Part shown: positions 25,002-37,314 of the stretch, piece after piece
Layout: each line of letters opens with the position of its first letter
Numbering within the stretch: position 1 is the first letter of the stretch
Virus record (IMG/VR): IMGVR_UViG_3300021057_000274
Coordinates: 124,001 to 188,000 of that record
Direction: 5' to 3' (one strand)
Source of the DNA: a virus
Length of the DNA stretch: 64,000 nucleotides
Made by a program: the position numbers and the translations under genes
The notes under the pieces: generated by a model
Database searches by the model: none
Told to the model about the DNA's origin: nothing
Seen by the model: the letters and a program-made list of their open reading frames with translations, nothing else

Positions 25002-25010
25002 CATAAATAC
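25002..25010 (+). promoter_or_regulatory. Late promoter-type motif (CATAAATAC), leaderless geometry
   Basis: Seven bases before the GTG start of the ligase gene and no ribosome site between. It appears to drive the whole 25.0-32.15 kb unit, whose genes are coupled by overlaps. Confidence 0.6.
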
Positions 25011-26522: not shown

Positions 26523-27492
26523 CTTTCTGCTCGGGCTAGACGAGTCAGCTCACCTGAACCGGCTCCAGGGAAAGAGCATGGATGACGTCAAGAACGCGTT
26601 CATGGCTAACCTCCTCGCGACGTTGCTCATCCTCCGCACGCAAGATCTTGACGGGCTCGTGCTGGTCAATGACCGGTCTGACCACAAGATCAAGAGCTTC
26701 TCGCCACAGATGCGTGACCTGAAGTTCTGGGGACGCGCCCTCTTCCACCCAGAGGACAAGGAGGTGAAGAAGCGGATCCTTCCCGGCCACGCCGACCTGC
26801 TTCACCGCGAGTCAGGGCGGATCTTCAACTCTAGGATCGAGTGGCTGATGAAGTTGCCGAGCACCTCTCCAGAGAACATCAACTGGCATGAGGTTACCTC
26901 ATGCCTCTTGCTCCTCCGTCACCGCTACACGATGCGGAGCTCGTACATGGATCGCATCATCAGCGCGATCTACCTCTGGGACCGCATCAAGGACACTCAG
27001 AAGCGCAAGGCGATCAACGACGCGTTCATGTACCTCCTGCAGAGCGACCAGAAGTCAGCTCTCTTGACCAGGATGCGGGCGCTGTCGACACGATCGCTCC
27101 TCAGCGCAACCGTCGCCGCGATGGCTCAACGCGTGATCGGCTTCAAGCGCCTCCACGAGAACGAGAGCATCTCGGTCGGAGGGATCGCCTCAGGCGGCAA
27201 CGCGATCGTGGGCGCCAACTCGGGGGCCTCCGCGATCACTCAGCCCGAGATGGACCAAACCGTTTCTAACCTCTACGGCTTGTCGAAGCTCTCGCAGATC
27301 CAAGTGCAAAAGCGAGGTAAATACATGTTCCGGGACAACAAGATCGTCAAGAAGAAGCCGAAGAAGTTCAAGGCGATCAAGTTCAAGGCCCCGAAACACA
27401 TGAAGTTGGATCGAACTCCCAACAAGGGAAAGAAGAACAAGCTGGGCTACGGCGCGGCTGAACTAGACGGAGCAGACGGAGGTAGCGAGTGA
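26509..27492 (+). CDS. Hypothetical 327-aa protein of the late ligase unit
   Basis: GGAGG at 26499-26503 is best placed for the second of two tandem ATGs. The protein is helical in its first 200 residues (TRMRALSTRSLLSATVAA) and has a Gly/Ala/Ser-rich middle (SVGGIASGGNAIVGANSGAS). It ends with a very basic Lys-rich stretch (IVKKKPKKFKAIKFKAPKHM) that could bind DNA or RNA. No family recognised. It overlaps the ligase gene by 14 bases and couples to the next by GTGA. Confidence 0.7.
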   Translation: MTSSNFLLGLDESAHLNRLQGKSMDDVKNAFMANLLATLLILRTQDLDGLVLVNDRSDHKIKSFSPQMRDLKFWGRALFHPEDKEVKKRILPGHADLLHRESGRIFNSRIEWLMKLPSTSPENINWHEVTSCLLLLRHRYTMRSSYMDRIISAIYLWDRIKDTQKRKAINDAFMYLLQSDQKSALLTRMRALSTRSLLSATVAAMAQRVIGFKRLHENESISVGGIASGGNAIVGANSGASAITQPEMDQTVSNLYGLSKLSQIQVQKRGKYMFRDNKIVKKKPKKFKAIKFKAPKHMKLDRTPNKGKKNKLGYGAAELDGADGGSE

Positions 27493-28835
27493 GTGACGTC
27501 AGACTGAAGAAGTCGTTTCGCGACATGGCGCAAGAGTTTGGTGTCCTCGTTCAAGAGTTCACCGCGCCGACCACGACGCCTGCGCCGAACCCCGCGATCC
27601 AGGCTACCCAAGCCAAGCAGCAGTCCGGTAACTTGCAAGACATCGAGAAGCAGGTGCAGGGCAAGCTCGACCGTTCAGAGAAGCTTGACGAGATCGACAC
27701 GGTGACGTTCGGCCTCGAGACCGACGACAACAAGATCGTCAAGGTCTACGTCAAGGCCGAGCAGGCCGATGACTTCGAGAAAGAGCTAGCGGAGCAGCTG
27801 GGAGAGTCCGACAACATCGAGGACGTGCTCAATGAGCTCTCCAAGAAGTACGAGATCGTCGACGTCGAGTGGCCTGACGATGAGGATGACGAGACGACGA
27901 AGCCAGACGAGGAGGACGAGGACGCTGAGTCCGACGGCTCAGAAGCGCTAAACGACAAGGTCTACAACAAGGATGACCAGATGGCAAAGGAAGATCTCAA
28001 TTTCGGAGAGCGCGCAACTCTAACTCTCCTCGAGGGCAACGACTCTGGACCGATCGAGCAACGTCTCAACACTCCGGCGCAGCTCATGGTCTACAACGCG
28101 ATCATCGAGCTGGGAATTCCTGAGGTCGTCCTGAACAAGAGCCCGTACAAGCCCGCGATCATCCAGGGCATCCGCGCGAAGGGCCTTGAGCTGATGAGAA
28201 ACTCCTCGCTCAAGCAAGCGCTCAAGCTCTTCATCACCCGGTCGAACGACTATGAGAACCTCAACCATGACTCGTACGCTCGCAAGGATAAGAAAGACGC
28301 GAAGGCAGATCCGAAGGCGAAGGACGCGAAGCCTGGAGCAGCTAGGCCGACCGCCAAGCAATCGGTCAAGGAGAGCGTCGAGAGCGCTAAGACCGATTGG
28401 AAGTTCGAGCGAGAGGGAGAGACCTTCAACATCTCTTGTGACTCGTTCGAGATTCACCTCGACGACGAGCAGACCGAGAAGCTTCTCAAGAGCGTCTCGA
28501 ACAAGGACGCCGTCGCGGTCAAGGACGCCGAGGACAACTCGAGCTTCATCTTCTCACCCCGGGGGGTCAACCTCCTAGTGAAGAAGAAGGGCGAGCAGCT
28601 GACGAAGCTCATGACAGCCGCGCAGCTCGACCAGATGTTCACGTCGCTCGGTGACATGGCTGCCGAAGGGTTGACTGAGGCGCTTGACCCGCAGTGCCCG
28701 GTCGTCAAGACCTTCCTGGCGACGACGGTTGACCCGAAGGCCCCAGAGTCGAAGGAGGACGCCGAGTTTCGCAAGATGCACCCGACCAAGTGTGCGCGCT
28801 GCAAGATGTACTCCCGGCGCAAGCTGACCGCTTGA
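27489..28835 (+). CDS. Hypothetical acidic 448-aa protein
   Basis: GTG start by overlap. The first 150 residues are acidic with a Pro/Thr linker (TAPTTTPAPNPA) and a run of Asp/Glu around 135-155. The middle is helical. A Lys/Ala-rich linker lies around residues 255-285, and a beta-like domain follows. The C-terminus holds a CARCKMYSRRK zinc-type motif. The modular, linker-rich build suggests a scaffold or adaptor. No family recognised. Its stop overlaps the TTG start of the nuclease gene. Confidence 0.7.
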   Translation: MSDVRLKKSFRDMAQEFGVLVQEFTAPTTTPAPNPAIQATQAKQQSGNLQDIEKQVQGKLDRSEKLDEIDTVTFGLETDDNKIVKVYVKAEQADDFEKELAEQLGESDNIEDVLNELSKKYEIVDVEWPDDEDDETTKPDEEDEDAESDGSEALNDKVYNKDDQMAKEDLNFGERATLTLLEGNDSGPIEQRLNTPAQLMVYNAIIELGIPEVVLNKSPYKPAIIQGIRAKGLELMRNSSLKQALKLFITRSNDYENLNHDSYARKDKKDAKADPKAKDAKPGAARPTAKQSVKESVESAKTDWKFEREGETFNISCDSFEIHLDDEQTEKLLKSVSNKDAVAVKDAEDNSSFIFSPRGVNLLVKKKGEQLTKLMTAAQLDQMFTSLGDMAAEGLTEALDPQCPVVKTFLATTVDPKAPESKEDAEFRKMHPTKCARCKMYSRRKLTA

Positions 28836-29488
28836 CCTTCAACTATCAAGACTACGAGGCGCTCAACGTAGAGGGAAAGCGGATCTACCAGATCTCCGCT
28901 GAAAAGTACTATCCCTCGATCACGACGATCTTAGGGCAGACCCAAGAGCCTGAGAAGCGTAACGCGCTCGACGCGTGGCGCGCGCGGGTCGGGGTGCAGA
29001 AAGCGAACAAGATCACGAGCGACGCGGCGACTCGCGGGACAAACACCCACTTGATGCTCGAGCGCTTCCTCAACGGCGAGGATCCTCGTCTCGAGGAGTT
29101 TCCAGAGGCTCACTCTCGGATCTTCAAGAGCCTCAGGCTCCAGCTCCAGCGCATAAATAAGGTCTACGGGCAAGAGGTGGTCTTGTTCTCCGACATCCTC
29201 GGAGTTGCCGGTCGATGTGACCTCGTGGCTGAGTACGACGGCACGCTCTCGATCGTCGACTACAAGACCTCCTCGAGGGTAAAGTCAGCCGACGAGATCG
29301 GTGACTACTGGTTGCAGGCCGCGTTCTACGCGATCGCGCACAACGAGATGTTTGGAACCGAGATCAGCAAGCTAGTCATCATGATGGGCGTTGAAAATCA
29401 CCTTCCCCTGATCTTCCGCAAGCAGATCGATGACGAGCTGCTGCTCAAGCTGGCGACTCGCGTCAGCGAGTTCTACGCGAGGATCTGA
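28832..29488 (+). CDS. PD-(D/E)XK exonuclease (Cas4/RecB-like)
   Basis: 218 residues. The catalytic core is GRCDLVAEYDGTLSIVDYKT (Asp, then Asp-x-Lys), the PD-(D/E)XK signature. An upstream TRGTNTHLMLERFLNG helix supplies the His of motif I, as in RecB-type nucleases. No clustered Fe-S cysteines are visible, so it is not a typical Cas4. Start: TTG overlapping the previous stop; the alternative upstream start lies inside the previous gene. It is located in the late ligase unit, so it may process DNA ends together with the ligase-type enzyme. Confidence 0.82.
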   Translation: MTFNYQDYEALNVEGKRIYQISAEKYYPSITTILGQTQEPEKRNALDAWRARVGVQKANKITSDAATRGTNTHLMLERFLNGEDPRLEEFPEAHSRIFKSLRLQLQRINKVYGQEVVLFSDILGVAGRCDLVAEYDGTLSIVDYKTSSRVKSADEIGDYWLQAAFYAIAHNEMFGTEISKLVIMMGVENHLPLIFRKQIDDELLLKLATRVSEFYARI

Positions 29489-29489
29489 G

Positions 29490-30332
29490 ATGAAGCTAGA
29501 TTCTCTCGTTCTCGTTGAGCGCGAACAGCTTCCGCAATACAAGAAGGAGCTGACAGAGCACCGCTTCGTCGACTTGCTTAACTCGCACTGCAAGAACTCG
29601 CACAACGTCGCCAAGCGAATCCCGCTGTACGTGCGCATGACCGGGGCTGACTTCATCCAGATCGACCCGCTCCAACGCGAGGAGCGCTCCCCGTTTTGGA
29701 TCGATCGCCTGATCAAGGAGATGACGGCCTGGAAGATGTTCCCGAGCCGCAGCCGCTGCTTGAAGGTCTTCACCGACAAGGACGGCATCGGCGACGGTGA
29801 CCTCTACGTCGTCTTCCCGTATGACAAGGCCAGGATCGGCGTTTGCTCGGGCAGTACGTTCTACAAGAGCTTCACCCACCTCAAGAAAGCCGTCGACGTC
29901 TCTCGAGTCGACAACACGGCGCTCCACAACTGGATCAAGAAGCTCATCTCGGCGCTGAACAAGGTCGAGTCCAAGATCAGGATTAACGTCGAGGACGACC
30001 ACGGCACCTTCAGCGAGTTCAAGAAGCTGCTCGACAAGGTCACCAAGGAGGTCACCGAGCACGGCTTCCAGAAGCTTCACAAAGCGCTCGTCAAGAGCGA
30101 CTCCCCGACCGACGAGGAGATGAAGATCGCCAAGAACTTCCTCGATCGTCACCTATCGGCTGACCGGTACCTCGAGGTGATGCTAGATCCGGGAACTAAT
30201 GATTTTGTCACGATGAGGATCGAGAGCTTGCAGAAGCCCTACTCTGGTCGTGAGATGTGGGTGAGCGCTCCGTGCTTACTCATCAAGCGAGACAAGTACG
30301 TCGAGATGCACGAGAGAGGGGACATCAAGTGA
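29490..30332 (+). CDS. Hypothetical 280-aa protein of the late unit
   Basis: ATG two bases after the nuclease stop. The protein is Lys/Asp/Glu-rich, with a beta-like N-terminal third (PLYVRMTGADFIQIDPLQRE) and a middle helical region with KKLLDKVTKEVTEHGFQKLH. The C-terminal part ends with KPYSGREMWVSAPCLLIKRD. No catalytic motif was seen. It overlaps the following gene by four bases (GTGA). Confidence 0.65.
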   Translation: MKLDSLVLVEREQLPQYKKELTEHRFVDLLNSHCKNSHNVAKRIPLYVRMTGADFIQIDPLQREERSPFWIDRLIKEMTAWKMFPSRSRCLKVFTDKDGIGDGDLYVVFPYDKARIGVCSGSTFYKSFTHLKKAVDVSRVDNTALHNWIKKLISALNKVESKIRINVEDDHGTFSEFKKLLDKVTKEVTEHGFQKLHKALVKSDSPTDEEMKIAKNFLDRHLSADRYLEVMLDPGTNDFVTMRIESLQKPYSGREMWVSAPCLLIKRDKYVEMHERGDIK

Positions 30333-30616
30333 AGCTAAGCGACATCTACGAGAAGTCAGCATACATCGCCACGGGGAACTCTGAGGATCTGGACGATAAC
30401 CTCACGACCTTTGAGGTGATCGGCGAAAACGAAGAGGAAGCATACAGCGTCGTCATCACCAAGGACGGCAAGGTCGACAGCGTCAATCCTGAGCCAAATG
30501 CCGATCGCGAGGCGATCATCAAGCCTGCGCTCGATCTGTTCAAAAAGCGCGGACGCGGGTCATACACCGATCTGCCTGCTAGCCAAAACGTCGGCAACAT
30601 CAAGCCAGCCAAGTGA
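30329..30616 (+). CDS. Hypothetical 95-aa acidic protein
   Basis: GTG start, overlapping both neighbours by four bases. Reads MKLSDIYEKSAYIATGNSED, then an acidic EVIGENEEEAYSVVITKDGK and a basic KKRGRGSY patch. Small alpha-beta protein. Strict coupling to the RimK-like gene suggests it may act with it (as a partner or as a substrate with acidic character), but no family is recognised. Confidence 0.6.
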   Translation: MKLSDIYEKSAYIATGNSEDLDDNLTTFEVIGENEEEAYSVVITKDGKVDSVNPEPNADREAIIKPALDLFKKRGRGSYTDLPASQNVGNIKPAK

Positions 30617-32154
30617 AGCTCCTCATCTTCACCGCCGAACCGAAGAACTTCGTCCCTGTCAAGATCGCAGAGGCGGCGGAGAAGGCTGGGTTCGAGTCGG
30701 CGGAGATCATCGACGTCACCCGTCTCATCCTCCTCGACTGGGAGAACGCTGAGATCTTCCGCGTCGTTCACGCCGAGCAGAGAGAGGGCGAGGAACCTGT
30801 CGAGCCCCAGATCGAGACTCTCCAGATCGACGAGAGCACCGTCATCATCCCGAGGCTCAACGAGCACCACCTCGACGTCAAGCTGTCAATCCTCAAGCGC
30901 GCCCAGCTCAAGGGCGCGAAGATGGTCAACTCGCCCGAGAGCATGGAGCTCTGCAACGACAAGCTGATGTCACAGGTGCTGCTGTCGAGCAATGGGGTCA
31001 TGACGCCAATCACTTACACGATTCCAGGCTGCGAGAAGTCGCTCGAGCCAGCGGTGATGCACATCGAGAAGTCAGGCATGAAGTTCCCGATGATCCTGAA
31101 GACCCTCCGAGGCACCCACGGAATCGGAGTCATGCGCGTCGACTCAAAGGCGTCGCTGACCTCGGTCGCACAGACGCTCTGCAAGGAAGGACTAGACGTT
31201 CTCATCCAGCAATACATCGAGCACGAGCACTCGTTCCGTATGATCATGGTCGGTCAAGAGCTGCTCGCCGCAAACAAGCGGGGTCAACCCAAGGACAAGG
31301 GCGAGTTTAGAACGAACGCGCATCTCGGCTCTCAGACGGAGGCCTACGAGCCTACCCAAGCCGAGATCGACCTCGGCAAGAAGATTGTCGCTCTCTTCGG
31401 CTGTAACTTCTGCGCGATCGACTACATCATGCTAGACGACAAGATCATCGTTCTTGAGGTCAACGGCTCACCAGGGCTCGAGAACATCCAGTCGAACTAC
31501 CCCGACCGTGATCTCCCGGCAAAGGTCGCAGAGTACGCGTTGACCTTCGTGAACGGGATCGCCGATCTAAAGACTGATGCCAACAGCGCTCCACCGACCG
31601 AGGACGAGATGGCGGTGGACAATCAAGCTCTGGCCGAACCTCCTGCTCTAGCAACTGATCTGGCGCCAGTCGAGCCAGCCACTGAGCCTACCGCGCCGAC
31701 GACGGAGCCGACCAACGACCGCTCTCCCGGCCAGATCAGCGAGGTTGAGCAGGTGATCATTCACCAGATCATCGAGGAACCTGTTGAGGCTAGGGTTGAC
31801 ACTGGAGCTAAGACGTCGTCACTTCACGTCGACAAGCTCGAGTTTGATGATGACTGGGCGAAGTTCACTCGTAAGGATTCTACCTTCAAGGTTCCTGTCG
31901 CACGCATCATCAAGGTCAAGAACGTCCACGGCGGTGACAACAGCCGCCGACCGGTGGTCAAGCTCGACGTCACGATCAACGACAAGCGTTATAACCGAGT
32001 TGAGTTCTCGCTCAACAACCGTGAGCAGATGAAGTATCAGGTGATCGTCGGTCGCAACCTGATTGAACTAGTCGGACTTCCTGTGACCGTCAAGACCAAC
32101 TCTGAACAGGCCCAAGACGCTCCTGAGGCGAAGGTCGAGATCGAAGAAGAGTAG
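30613..32154 (+). CDS. RimK-type ATP-grasp ligase fused to RimB-type aspartic protease
   Basis: 513 residues in two modules. Residues 1-310 form a RimK-like ATP-grasp ligase: ILKTLRGTHGIGVMRV (about 161-176) is the ATP loop and IVLEVNGSPGLENIQ (279-293) the metal-binding end. After a Pro/Thr/Glu linker (about 325-372) comes a protease-like module with ARVDTGAKTSSLHV (Asp396-Thr-Gly) and a late VIVGRNLIELVGLPV, matching the RimB/retropepsin-like zinc-protease family found beside rimK. RimK adds Glu to ribosomal protein S6 and RimB removes it. A single chain with both activities could edit a tail of one protein. Target unknown. Confidence 0.8.
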   Translation: MKLLIFTAEPKNFVPVKIAEAAEKAGFESAEIIDVTRLILLDWENAEIFRVVHAEQREGEEPVEPQIETLQIDESTVIIPRLNEHHLDVKLSILKRAQLKGAKMVNSPESMELCNDKLMSQVLLSSNGVMTPITYTIPGCEKSLEPAVMHIEKSGMKFPMILKTLRGTHGIGVMRVDSKASLTSVAQTLCKEGLDVLIQQYIEHEHSFRMIMVGQELLAANKRGQPKDKGEFRTNAHLGSQTEAYEPTQAEIDLGKKIVALFGCNFCAIDYIMLDDKIIVLEVNGSPGLENIQSNYPDRDLPAKVAEYALTFVNGIADLKTDANSAPPTEDEMAVDNQALAEPPALATDLAPVEPATEPTAPTTEPTNDRSPGQISEVEQVIIHQIIEEPVEARVDTGAKTSSLHVDKLEFDDDWAKFTRKDSTFKVPVARIIKVKNVHGGDNSRRPVVKLDVTINDKRYNRVEFSLNNREQMKYQVIVGRNLIELVGLPVTVKTNSEQAQDAPEAKVEIEEE

Positions 32155-32158
32155 CAAG

Positions 32159-32167
32159 AGTAAATAG
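32159..32167 (+). promoter_or_regulatory. Late promoter-type motif (AGTAAATAG), leadered
   Basis: 20 nt before the ATG of the oxygenase-like gene. The ribosome site is weak (ACGGA). Confidence 0.55.
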
Positions 32168-32186
32168 AACAATAACATAGACGGAT

Positions 32187-32813
32187 ATGCAACCAAAATC
32201 TCCCTTCCTAGTGTTTCAAGACCTGCTTGACGGCCCGACCTGCGATCGCATCGCTGAGACCGTGCGTGTCGAGCCCTCCAAGGACGATGAAAATCGACCC
32301 TTAGCGATGGAGCGCTACCACGTTCCCTCTGAGGAGGTCGTCTTTGACGCGTTCAAGCAGCACATCCCAACCTTAGCGAAGCACTACGAGGGATTCGTTT
32401 ACCGAGGCACCGAGCATCTGGTCTTTCAGCAGTTTCCCGTCAACGGCAAGATCGCAGAGAAGCCGCACTGTGAGAACGCGGTCTTCAAGCGAAAGAAGTG
32501 GATCAAGATCAAGGACCGCGACCTGACAGGAGTGCTCTGGTTGAAAGACTTTCAGGACGTTCCGCCGTTCAACATCAAGACGCAGGTGCTCGGCGGCAAG
32601 CTCGAGTTTCCGGCCTACAACTTTGGCTTCCAGCCTCAGAAGGGGACGCTCGTAGTCTATCCAGCTTGCCCTCGCTTCATCAGCCTAGTCTCTCAGATCA
32701 TGGTGGGAGAGCTCCAGCAGATCCGATTTCACATCTGTGGAGAGGGGATATGGACCTATAACCCGGAGAGATACCCGGGAGATTTCCGCGACTGGTTCAA
32801 GGAAATAGTGTAG
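32187..32813 (+). CDS. 2OG-Fe(II) oxygenase-like protein
   Basis: 208 residues with the beta-rich pattern of phage 2-oxoglutarate/Fe(II) oxygenases. EKPHCENAVFK would supply the His-x-acid pair, GGKLEFPAYNFGFQPQKGTL resembles the jelly-roll centre, and QQIRFHICGEG could carry the 2OG-binding Arg. The usual distal His (normally HRV/HEV in the VYPA.. segment) is replaced: the segment reads YPACPRFISLV. It is therefore either a divergent or inactive member, or another jelly-roll protein. Such genes are common in T4-like phages; function unclear. Confidence 0.55.
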   Translation: MQPKSPFLVFQDLLDGPTCDRIAETVRVEPSKDDENRPLAMERYHVPSEEVVFDAFKQHIPTLAKHYEGFVYRGTEHLVFQQFPVNGKIAEKPHCENAVFKRKKWIKIKDRDLTGVLWLKDFQDVPPFNIKTQVLGGKLEFPAYNFGFQPQKGTLVVYPACPRFISLVSQIMVGELQQIRFHICGEGIWTYNPERYPGDFRDWFKEIV

Positions 32814-34876: not shown

Positions 34877-35278
34877 TTACTCCGGCTTCTCTGGTTTGTC
34901 TTTCTTGTCTTCCTTCTTCGTCGGCTCTGGCGTCGGAAGAGTTTGCCCGCCCGTAAACTTCTTGTCAAGGAAGCCACGGAACCACTTTCCGAAGCCCTCG
35001 ACGCCTGCGATGAAGAGGAGCCAGAGACCGAAGAGCTCCCAGCCCAGACTCAACATGTAAGCGTACCAGCCGATGAAGAGCGTCGAGAAGACGATGCCGA
35101 CACAGATCCCGAGCTTGTTCGCGTCACCGTATTGCTTTCCGTCAGCTCCGCGACTTGAGAAGAAGTGCCACCACTCGATCGGGTTTTCGGGGTCGTTGAT
35201 GACTCGCACGAGCCCCCAGACAAAGACGAGGAGCAAGACTACTCCCATGATCGCTTCTAGTTCTAACGTCAGTTCCAT
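34877..35278 (-). CDS. Holin-like three-span membrane protein
   Basis: 133 residues with three hydrophobic helices (about 10-27, 55-75 and 81-98) and a charged Lys/Pro/Glu-rich cytoplasmic tail (PTPEPTKKEDKKDKPEKPE). Three spans and a polar tail match class I holins, which form the lesions that release or activate the endolysin. The position directly before the spanins supports the call. Its ATG overlaps the tail-fibre stop (TAATG). Confidence 0.6.
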   Translation of the reverse strand: MELTLELEAIMGVVLLLVFVWGLVRVINDPENPIEWWHFFSSRGADGKQYGDANKLGICVGIVFSTLFIGWYAYMLSLGWELFGLWLLFIAGVEGFGKWFRGFLDKKFTGGQTLPTPEPTKKEDKKDKPEKPE

Positions 35279-37287
35279 TATGCGTATCTGATCCAGATGT
35301 CGCCGTCGACTCCGCCTGAGGGGCCGCTGGTGGAGACCGTCTTAGCCGAGTTGCCCCAGAGGGTCGCGTTGTTCGCGTTCGTCGCTGTCGTTGCGTTGTT
35401 CGCGTTCGTCGCCGTGGTAGCCGTCGTCGCCGTGTCAGCGTTGCCTTGTAGCGCTCCGATGAAGGTGGTCGCAGTAACGTTACGGGCCGCAAAGTCGCCG
35501 TTGTTGTCACGGAGCACGATCTTATTAGCGGTGTTGGTGGAGACCGCCTCGATCGTCGCACTGTTTTGCTGGCCGGTGATGCTGCTTGCGGTGGTGGCCG
35601 TCGTCGCGGACGTAGCCGTCGTCGCGGACGTAGCCGTCGTCGCGTTGCCTTGCAACGCCCCGATGAAAGTCGTCGCTGTGACGATGCGAGCGGCGAAGTC
35701 GCCGTTGCTGTCACGGAGCACGATCTTGTTAGCGGTATTGGTAGAAACCGCCTCGATCGTCGCGCTGTTTTGCTGATTCGTGATCGTCGACGCGGTGGTC
35801 GCCGTCGTCGCGTTGCCCGTAACGTTGCCCGTGACGTTGCCGGTCAAGTTGCCGACGACGTTGCCCGTGACGTTGCCAGTGAGAGGCCCGAGGAACACGG
35901 TCGCGGTGATCTCACGAGCTGCGAAGTCTCCGTCGGCGTCACGAAGGACGATGCGATCGCCGATGTTATTTGCGGTCGCGGTGATCGTCGCGCTGTTGGC
36001 TTGGCCGACGATGCTCACCGCTGACATCGTCTGATCTGCCCAACCCACGCGAATCGCGGCGCCGTGTGAGGATGTAAAGTTCCAACGCGACCCGTCCCAC
36101 GCGATCGAGTTGGTGTAGGTGGACCCGTGCGACGTCGTGTACAAGTTGGTCGCGTTCGTCGCGGTAGTCGCGGTAGTCGCCGTGGTAGCAGTGGTCGCGG
36201 TGGTCGCGGTGGTCGCGGTGGTAGCTGTAGTCGCGGTAGTCGCCGTGGTAGCTGAGGTGGCGTTCCCCGTGAGCGCTCCGACGAACGTGGTCGCTGTAAC
36301 CACGTTCGCTGAAAAGTCACCGTTGCTGTCTCGCAGAACGATGCGGTTTGCGGTGTTGGTCGACGTCGCGACTATCGTCGCGCTGTTCGCTTGATTGGTG
36401 ATGGTACCAGCCGTAGTTGCGGTGGTCGCGGAAGTCGCCGTGGTAGCCGTCGTCGCGGTCGTTGCGGTGGTAGCGTTAGTCGCGTTAGTGGCATTAGTTG
36501 CGTTAGTCGCATTGGTAGCATTCGTCGCAAAGTTGACCCGGGTCGGGCCGATGGGACGCCACCTCAGAGTCGTGCCGTCGTATCGTACGGTGAACGACTC
36601 GGCGGCGGCGATCGCAAAGTCCTCAGAGCCGTTGAGAGCGAAGCGGTTAGCCGCGGTCGAGTTGGTGCTCTCGTTCTTGAGCACGATCGGGAACGAGCCG
36701 ATGTTGTGGATGATCAAGACCCGCTCAGGCGTCGTCGGCACGATGCCCGTGATGTCACGGCTGGCGTCAGTCGAGACGCGCAAGATGTTAGCTGTATCGA
36801 GGCCTGTAGGGTTGTAATTGTTTTGATTACCCGTGATCTGGGCCGGCGAGATGACCTCAGGGAGCGTGAAGAGGGCGACCTGAGACTCGACGGCTACCCA
36901 GTTTCCACCGTTGTCATAGACCTTGAGAACGTCATTGACCGTGTCATACCAGAGGTCGCCAGAGTAGTGGGTTCCAGTCGGCTCGGCTCCAGCGTCGATC
37001 CTGCGATACGCGAGGTCGTTCCACGCAGCTGTGTGGTAGACGTAGAGGCGCTTGTCGCTCGACTTGAACCAGAGCTGTCCGGTGGTCGGGGCGGCTGGAG
37101 CGTTCGCCGAGGCCGAGTGCTCGAGCATCCGGATCAAATTTTCCTGGAGCTTCTCGCCCCAGTTTGCTACGCCCTTTCCTGTGAGGGTCAGTGACGTCGA
37201 CGTAGTGTCGACGGTGCGGGCGGAGAGCACAAACGGGGGCTTGAGCCCGTCGTCTGACCAATTCAGGGTATAGTTGTTGGTGACCAC
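35278..37287 (-). CDS. Long tail fibre protein with NAT-type repeats (paralogue A)
   Basis: 669 residues. The start is the GTG placed 4 nt after a TAAATAC motif; a longer GTG reading is possible. The first 250 residues parallel the gene at 42354: TLNWSDDGLKPPF, TSLTLTGKGVANWGEK, LRVSTDASRDITG and a final RVNFATNATNAT. The centre is low-complexity NAT/TAT repeats separated by conserved blocks (ANRIVLRDSNGDF). The C-terminus ends GPSGGVDGDIWIRYA, also shared with the paralogue. It is likely a fibrous, trimeric host-contact protein. Confidence 0.8.
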   Translation of the reverse strand: MVTNNYTLNWSDDGLKPPFVLSARTVDTTSTSLTLTGKGVANWGEKLQENLIRMLEHSASANAPAAPTTGQLWFKSSDKRLYVYHTAAWNDLAYRRIDAGAEPTGTHYSGDLWYDTVNDVLKVYDNGGNWVAVESQVALFTLPEVISPAQITGNQNNYNPTGLDTANILRVSTDASRDITGIVPTTPERVLIIHNIGSFPIVLKNESTNSTAANRFALNGSEDFAIAAAESFTVRYDGTTLRWRPIGPTRVNFATNATNATNATNATNATNATTATTATTATTATSATTATTAGTITNQANSATIVATSTNTANRIVLRDSNGDFSANVVTATTFVGALTGNATSATTATTATTATTATTATTATTATTATTATTATNATNLYTTSHGSTYTNSIAWDGSRWNFTSSHGAAIRVGWADQTMSAVSIVGQANSATITATANNIGDRIVLRDADGDFAAREITATVFLGPLTGNVTGNVVGNLTGNVTGNVTGNATTATTASTITNQQNSATIEAVSTNTANKIVLRDSNGDFAARIVTATTFIGALQGNATTATSATTATSATTATTASSITGQQNSATIEAVSTNTANKIVLRDNNGDFAARNVTATTFIGALQGNADTATTATTATNANNATTATNANNATLWGNSAKTVSTSGPSGGVDGDIWIRYA
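36138..36262 (-). repeat. Short tandem repeats coding Ala-Thr-Thr/Asn-Ala-Thr
   Basis: Imperfect 9-nt units (GTCGCGGTG / GTAGTCGCC types on the plus strand) coding ATT and NAT triplets of the tail fibre. Similar runs lie around 35600 and 36411-36530. A run this repetitive can change length by slippage or recombination. Confidence 0.75.
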
Positions 37288-37290
37288 ACG

Positions 37291-37299
37291 GTATTTATC
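37291..37299 (-). promoter_or_regulatory. Late promoter-type motif (GATAAATAC), leaderless geometry
   Basis: Four bases before the GTG start of tail fibre A on the minus strand. A GGAG lies 11 bases upstream, too far for a normal Shine-Dalgarno. Confidence 0.55.
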
Positions 37300-37314
37300 T
37301 CCGTGAGGACTCAC

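What the first reader, a model, noticed from the sequence alone, without database searches (positions are those of the whole stretch)
30613..32154. RimK-type ATP-grasp ligase and RimB-type protease in one phage protein
In bacteria rimK (adds Glu to ribosomal protein S6) and the adjacent retropepsin-like rimB are separate genes. Here an ATP-grasp module with EVNGSPGLENI and a module with VDTGAKTSSLHV are joined through a Pro/Thr linker. A phage could use the pair to edit the host ribosome or to add and trim residues on a virion protein. The fused layout and its late promoter-type motif are unusual.
Basis: partly seen in the sequence, partly recalled or inferred. Interest (0 to 1): 0.7.

Follow-up and report, generated by a model that had tools for sequence, protein, structure and literature searches.

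The report
Phage enzyme adds and trims glutamates
A giant phage carries one protein that joins an enzyme which adds glutamate tails to proteins to a protease which cuts such tails; that pairing in phages was already reported in 2008, but this branch of the family keeps its own three-glutamate end, which suggests that the enzyme may modify itself.

Summary
Window 30613-32154 (+) encodes 513 aa: a RimK-type ATP-grasp ligase (residues 1-316; Pfam 6.6e-28; predicted fold matches RimK crystals, Z 31), a disordered Pro/Thr linker, then a RimB/retropepsin-type domain (376-489; Pfam 6.8e-18; intact DTG). The pairing is not new. Monier et al. 2008 reported phage RimK carrying this domain (DUF785) on its C-terminal side, and bacteria have a RimBK hybrid in the opposite order. 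I found the phage order in 11 distinct relatives from the same jumbo clade, about 70 marine T4-like contigs, and phages YerA41 and Mosig.

Two features appear undescribed. (1) In the jumbo clade the protein ends in -EEE (10 of 12; other ORFs of these contigs 1 of 166), although the 20 residues before it diverge. RimK extends C-terminal glutamates and five suffice for RimB to cut, so EEE may be a protected self-acceptor stub. (2) Marine relatives carry a T4-type capsid-targeting motif (72 of 72), and the YerA41 relative is annotated as a structural protein, so some copies are probably packaged and injected. The window protein lacks this motif.

Editing of host S6 is possible but untested. Neither single-function equivalog cut-off (S6 ligase, RimB) is met.

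The parts
30613..32154 (+). RimK-RimB fusion gene (513 aa, GTG start overlapping the TGA of the small upstream ORF)
30613..31560 (+). Ligase module, residues 1-316: pre-ATP-grasp plus ATP-grasp. R81, K117, K163, R209, D270, E282, N284 are invariant across the phage relatives
   Evidence: Pfam PF08443; Z 31.4 to 7qys, 31.1 to the RimK-RpsF complex 5zk6; invariants; residue roles by alignment to P. aeruginosa RimK
31561..31731 (+). Pro/Thr/Glu-rich disordered linker, residues 317-373
   Evidence: pLDDT <50 at 316-373; variable length in relatives
31738..32079 (+). RimB/RloA-type retropepsin module, residues 376-489
   Evidence: PF05618; RloA structures 9g58, 9g59 and Legionella 2pma; matches BFVD models of phage 'ATP-dependent zinc protease'
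31798..31806 (+). Asp-Thr-Gly active-site motif (D396-G398)
   Evidence: invariant in all 14 aligned relatives
32080..32151 (+). Disordered C-terminal tail, residues 490-513
   Evidence: pLDDT <50 at 490-513; poorly alignable between relatives apart from its end
32143..32151 (+). Terminal Glu-Glu-Glu stub (residues 511-513), conserved in the jumbo clade
   Evidence: 10 of 12 distinct proteins end in EEE against 1 of 166 other ORFs; synonymous codons and stop codons vary
25002..25009 (+). CATAAATA, T4-late-type promoter candidate at the head of the syntenic cassette
   Evidence: same element at the same place in L014 and L016
25017..26522 (+). Cassette gene 1 (501 aa, unknown)
   Evidence: syntenic in L010, L011, L012, L014, L016
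26506..27492 (+). Cassette gene 2 (328 aa, unknown)
   Evidence: syntenic
27489..28835 (+). Cassette gene 3 (448 aa, unknown)
   Evidence: syntenic
28790..29488 (+). Cassette gene 4, PD-(D/E)XK exonuclease (phrog_298)
29430..30332 (+). Cassette gene 5 (phrog_12810, unknown; true start may lie inside the ORF)
30330..30616 (+). Small ORF (about 95 aa) directly upstream, GTG start, overlapping the fusion gene's start
   Evidence: read from the sequence
32161..32166 (+). TAAATA element between the fusion gene and the next gene; placed for the next gene
32187..32813 (+). Downstream gene (208 aa, weak 2OG-Fe(II) oxygenase similarity), the conserved neighbour

Best explanation
The protein is a two-headed C-terminal glutamylation enzyme. 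The N-terminal RimK-type ATP-grasp domain should activate a C-terminal carboxylate with ATP and ligate L-glutamate to it repeatedly. The C-terminal RimB-type retropepsin, which should act as a dimer, should cut poly-glutamate back. In this jumbo-phage clade the protein ends in its own three-glutamate stub. I propose that this stub is the built-in acceptor, in cis or between protomers: the ligase extends it and the protease trims it, but leaves a stub shorter than the roughly five glutamates that suffice for RimB. The enzyme would thereby carry a self-limited poly-glutamate tail and could also act on other C-termini. Shown: fold and family of both modules, intact active-site residues, the fusion, the conserved EEE end, the conserved gene order. 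Inferred: the chemistry, the self-acceptor role, the late timing.
For: Both modules pass Pfam cut-offs and the ligase model matches RimK at Z 31. RimK poly-Glu contacts R64, R189, N262 correspond to invariant R81, R209, N284. DTG is invariant. RimK extends C-terminal Glu, and the RpsF C-terminus is its known target (PMC7343187). RimB acts on added poly-Glu tails, five contiguous Glu suffice (PMC11957791), and it had no effect on unmodified RpsF. The EEE end was noticed on 7 distinct proteins (5 end in EEE, one in EE, one in K) and then checked on 5 further distinct proteins fetched afterwards, all of which end in EEE. Background is 1 of 166 other ORFs; codons and stops vary, so selection seems to act on the residues. 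In the whole 389 kb record only four ORFs over 100 aa end in EEE, this one included.
Against: No activity was measured. Poly-Glu contacts S7, R8, S14 of P. aeruginosa RimK are not conserved (T7, A8, V14 in P0001), so the acceptor pocket differs (my alignment). The bacterial RimBK hybrid cut poly-Glu but was not seen to glutamylate RpsF. Two of 12 jumbo-clade proteins do not end in EEE (EE in L010, K in L011), and the marine clade and YerA41 lack the tail altogether. The tail could serve binding or autoinhibition instead. The relatives are phylogenetically linked, so the counts are not independent events.
Confidence: 0.5

Rival explanations
1. Host ribosome editor: the enzyme glutamylates and deglutamylates host ribosomal protein S6 to favour phage translation (first reader; a ribosome role was also proposed for phage RimK by Monier et al. 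2008).
For: RimK fold closest to S6-modifying RimK structures including the RimK-RpsF complex 5zk6. Mosig's copy sits beside a translational repressor gene. No S6 is encoded in the record, so the target would be the host's.
Against: Far below the S6-ligase equivalog cut-off (75.7 against 331 bits). The acceptor pocket differs. The bacterial RimBK hybrid was not seen to modify RpsF. Host and its S6 tail are unknown.
Confidence: 0.2
2. Packaged effector: the enzyme is loaded in the capsid and injected with the DNA to modify host proteins at once, as with T4 internal proteins and Alt.
For: 72 of 72 complete marine N-termini carry [FY]-x2-[FY]-[LI]-x-E, 67 of them followed by A, against 0 of 634 other ORFs. 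This resembles the T4 capsid-targeting sequence and its cleavage site (PMC9026906). The Mosig major capsid protein has FLSE-A in its N-terminal region. The YerA41 relative is annotated 'structural protein' in a phage whose virion proteome was done by LC-MS/MS. CATAAATA heads the cassette. The record encodes a gp21-type prohead protease.
Against: The window protein and its clade start directly at the ligase fold and have no targeting segment. The YerA41 peptide table was not readable here, so the annotation's basis is inferred. The motif was noticed before it was counted.
Confidence: 0.3
3. Pseudosubstrate tail: the EEE end sits in the ligase or protease active site as an autoinhibitory gate and is not itself extended.
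For: Same tail conservation; the tail is disordered, so it could reach either domain.
Against: RimK accepts C-terminal Glu as a substrate, so a bound EEE with a free carboxylate would be expected to react.
Confidence: 0.15
4. Small-molecule or other peptide ligase: the ATP-grasp head makes a metabolite or uses another amino acid, like LysX, ArgX or glutathione synthetase, and the retropepsin processes something else.
For: Second-best fold matches are ArgX and LysX (Z 24-28). The general subfamily model TIGR00768 scores 140.5 against a cut-off of 143.4.
Against: RimK proper is clearly the best match by sequence and fold, and the partner domain is of the RimB type.
Confidence: 0.15

Closest known systems
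Phage RimK with C-terminal DUF785 (PF05618), Monier et al. 2008 (PMC2530865)
   Same: Same two domains in the same order in phage genomes; Mosig and the marine T4-like contigs are of this kind
   Different: The marine T4-like ones carry a capsid-targeting-like motif at the N-terminus; this jumbo clade lacks it and has an EEE C-terminus
Bacterial RimBK hybrid, Desulfotalea psychrophila DP2392 (PMC11957791)
   Same: RimK and RimB domains in one chain; protease active on poly-Glu RpsF
   Different: RimB is N-terminal there; here it is C-terminal. The ligase domains of my fused B-K rows fall in a different part of the tree (DP2392 itself was not included)
RimK S6-glutamate ligase (E. coli 4iwx, P. 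syringae 7qys)
   Same: Fold, ATP-site and donor-end residues
   Different: About 22% identity; acceptor-side residues S7, R8, S14 not kept; below the equivalog cut-off
RimB / RloA retropepsins (9g58, 9g59, 2pma)
   Same: DTGA motif and domain length; best NCBIfam match RloA3
   Different: Below all equivalog cut-offs; fused to a ligase
YerA41_066 (Yersinia phage YerA41)
   Same: K-then-B fusion, 29% identity
   Different: No EEE tail; annotated as a structural protein
T4 internal proteins and Alt (capsid-targeted, injected)
   Same: Marine relatives share the N-terminal targeting and cleavage pattern
   Different: The window protein has no such segment

Membership tests
RimK-like ATP-grasp (PF08443) | Pfam gathering score (21 bits) | tested here: met
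   98 bits, E 6.6e-28
RimK-like ATP-grasp (PF08443) | RimK fold | tested here: met
   Z 31.4, rmsd 2.4 over 289 residues to 7qys
RimK-like ATP-grasp (PF08443) | Active-site Lys, Arg, Asp, Glu, Asn | tested here: met
   K117, K163, R209, D270, E282, N284 invariant
RimK family alpha-L-glutamate ligase (TIGR00768) | Curated cut-off 143.4 bits | tested here: not met
   140.5 bits, just below
S6-L-glutamate ligase RimK (NF007764 equivalog) | Curated cut-off 331 bits | tested here: not met
   75.7 bits
S6-L-glutamate ligase RimK (NF007764 equivalog) | Poly-Glu acceptor contacts S7, R8, S14 (P. aeruginosa numbering) | tested here: inconclusive
   T7, A8, V14 in P0001, so apparently not kept, but the N-terminal RimK letters were recalled, not fetched; R64, R189, N262 are kept
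S6-L-glutamate ligase RimK (NF007764 equivalog) | Glutamylation of S6 | not testable with these tools
   needs an assay
RimB / Zn_protease family (PF05618) | Pfam gathering score (27 bits) | tested here: met
   65.3 bits, E 6.8e-18
RimB / Zn_protease family (PF05618) | Retropepsin Asp-Thr/Ser-Gly | tested here: met
   D396-T-G, invariant
RimB endopeptidase (NF052261 equivalog) | Curated cut-off 200 bits | tested here: not met
   33.5 bits; best is RloA3 at 62.7 against 210
Bacterial RimBK hybrid | RimB N-terminal to RimK | tested here: not met
   order is K then B; cellular fused rows are B then K but for L108
Phage RimK-DUF785 fusion (Monier 2008) | DUF785/PF05618 on the C-terminal side of a phage RimK | tested here: met
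T4-type capsid-targeted internal protein | N-terminal targeting segment with [LI]-x-E cleavage site | tested here: not met
   absent in the jumbo clade; present in 72 of 72 marine relatives
T4-type capsid-targeted internal protein | Presence in the virion | not testable with these tools
   only the YerA41 relative is annotated so

The most novel reading that the evidence does not exclude
A phage enzyme that builds and trims a poly-glutamate tail on its own C-terminus: ligase, protease and acceptor stub in one chain, with the encoded EEE held just below the protease's cutting threshold. Combined with packaging in relatives, some phages would inject a protein-glutamylation enzyme of this kind.
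Probability: 0.3. Interest if true: 0.72.

Novelty: new variant of a known kind. Interest (0 to 1): 0.48.

Why it matters
The substrate of phage RimK enzymes has been open since 2008, and the bacterial hybrid showed protease but not ligase activity on S6. A conserved acceptor-like tail on the enzyme itself and a capsid-targeting motif on its relatives turn that into two simple tests: intact-mass measurement of the purified protein, and virion proteomics. If the self-acceptor reading is right, C-terminal glutamylation is not only a ribosome modification but also a self-regulated phage device.

Tried and rejected
Late promoter directly in front of the gene: no exact TATAAATA in the window; the nearby TAAATA lies after the gene. 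Phage-encoded S6 as target: none in the record. Second ligase or protease copy: none. Defence-system membership: no PADLOC match to the fusion protein or to five of the six conserved neighbour genes (the 28790 exonuclease was not submitted). Near-identical cultured phage: none by megablast. Single-sequence scan of viral contigs found nothing; alignment-based scans worked. K-then-B fusions among the 80 best cellular loci: only L108, with a very divergent ligase; the rest are ligase genes with or without a separate RimB gene nearby, or B-K fusions. The Haloarchaeal K-B fusions named by Monier were not fetched. Origin of the phage fusion by tree: phage K-B rows fall outside cellular RimK, but long branches meet and the tree is a quick one, so I draw no origin. 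Other EEE-ending proteins of the record as trans-substrates: an SbcD-like nuclease, a cytidyltransferase-like protein and a 116-aa ORF exist; no evidence links them. The PDB fold matches did not list the retropepsin fold because the ligase fills the list; its assignment rests on sequence profiles and BFVD matches. The amidoligase survey PMC3268129 was not held.

Full report
What is there. Window 30613-32154 (+) encodes a 513-residue protein. Residues 115-295 match PF08443 RimK (E 6.6e-28) and 378-486 match PF05618 Zn_protease, the family of RimB (E 6.8e-18). An AlphaFold model built on 14 sequences (pLDDT 71.7) places residues 1-316 on RimK crystal structures (7qys Z 31.4; RimK-RpsF complex 5zk6 Z 31.1). 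The protease module is supported by sequence matches to RloA structures 9g58 and 9g59 and to 2pma, and by BFVD matches to phage zinc-protease models. Linker (316-373) and tail (490-513) are disordered. It is the only copy in the 389,331-base virus record, which also encodes a gp23-type capsid protein and a gp21-type prohead protease; cassette neighbours have distant relatives in jumbo phages such as Munch, GAP32, XacN1 and Atu_ph07.

Active sites. Across jumbo and marine relatives the ATP-grasp residues K117, K163, R209, D270, E282, N284, the contact R81, and the protease D396-T-G are invariant. In P. aeruginosa RimK the bound poly-Glu contacts S7, R8, S14, R64, S68, R189 and N262 (PMC10092738). 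By alignment R64, R189 and N262 are kept, while the N-terminal S7, R8, S14 appear replaced by T, A and V in a conserved T-x-E-P segment (the N-terminal letters of bacterial RimK were recalled, not fetched). So the chemistry should be kept but the acceptor side has probably changed.

What is already known. Monier et al. 2008 (PMC2530865) reported phage RimK in marine metagenomes, several with DUF785 (PF05618) on the C-terminal side, and noted bacterial (N-terminal) and Halobacterial (C-terminal) fusions. Little et al. 2025 (PMC11957791) showed that the Desulfotalea RimBK hybrid cuts poly-Glu RpsF but saw no glutamylation of RpsF by it. Among 80 cellular loci I found rimK genes with rimB nearby, rimK alone, B-K fusions, and one divergent K-B fusion.

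Relatives. The jumbo clade (L010-L017, L184-L190; 37-50% identity in the best tblastn segment) has the same architecture. L010-L017 keep the same gene order around it, as far as their contigs reach: three unknown genes, a PD-(D/E)XK exonuclease, a phrog_12810 protein, the fusion, and a weakly 2OG-like protein. The marine T4-like clade (L018-L089, Mosig) has a more diverged protease domain (PF05618 E 1e-6 to 1e-9 in the members tested; FDTGN). YerA41 has a further version (P0002), annotated 'structural protein'; 63 virion proteins of this phage were found by LC-MS/MS (PMC7354516), but the peptide table could not be read here. Melnitz phages and cyanophages have the ligase alone. On a quick tree the phage K-B rows lie outside cellular RimK and apart from B-K fusions, with long branches.

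New point 1, the tail. Seven distinct jumbo-clade proteins were seen first: five end in EEE, one in EE, one in K. Five more distinct proteins fetched later all end in EEE. Of 166 other ORFs in these contigs one ends in EEE. The Glu codons and the stop codons vary, and the preceding 20 residues align poorly. RimK extends a C-terminal tail and RimB does not touch unmodified RpsF (PMC7343187); five contiguous Glu suffice for RimB. I infer that EEE is a self-acceptor stub below the protease's threshold. A pseudosubstrate role is the main alternative.

New point 2, packaging in relatives. All 72 complete marine N-termini have [FY]-x2-[FY]-[LI]-x-E, followed by A in 67; none of 634 other ORFs of the same contigs has it. 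T4 internal proteins use a short N-terminal capsid-targeting sequence cleaved by gp21 (PMC9026906), and the Mosig capsid protein carries FLSE-A near its N-terminus. The inference is that marine versions are packaged and injected. The motif was noticed before being counted, and rows are related (25 distinct variants). The jumbo clade has no such segment, so this does not transfer to the window protein.

Timing. CATAAATA at 25002-25009 heads the cassette, as in L014 and L016; the TAAATA at 32161 belongs in front of the next gene, with counterparts in L011, L012, L014, L016 and L017. Late transcription is therefore plausible and untested.

Conclusion. A new clade of a known phage fusion, with an intact ligase and protease, an apparently altered acceptor site and a conserved C-terminal tri-glutamate for which I found no report. 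Substrate unknown; self-modification is the explanation I rank first, packaged effector and S6 editing next.

Noticed in passing
window 22275+, 25004+, 33073+, 44992-, 46498-, 58319-, 61851- and others: TAAATA occurs 20 times and 8 copies lie 2-12 nt before the ATG/GTG of an ORF of at least 80 aa; all other permutations of the hexamer together do so in 7 of 61. Looks like T4-type late promoters giving nearly leaderless mRNAs.
   Followed up: partly
L113:4639-5127: A free-standing RimB of a gammaproteobacterial MAG, encoded after rimK, also ends in ...EEEDFPPDYEEE, a possible independent case of an acidic acceptor-like tail.
   Followed up: no
L108:3575-4951: A bacterial MAG gene with a very divergent ATP-grasp followed by an intact RimB-type domain (K then B), next to another divergent ATP-grasp and a canonical RimK.
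   Followed up: no
L199:1504-2310 and L200:307-1509 (same virus record as the window): A cytidyltransferase-like protein and an SbcD-like nuclease of the same phage also end in EEE; possible trans-substrates.
   Followed up: partly
window 35278-37314 (-): A 678-aa tail-region protein with long runs of NAT/TAT repeats; related ORFs in L010, L013, L014 and L016.
   Followed up: no
L092:3977-4855: In cyanophage S-RIM32 the ligase-only RimK gene sits shortly after the major capsid gene; in S-CAM8 it follows psbA/psbD.
   Followed up: no
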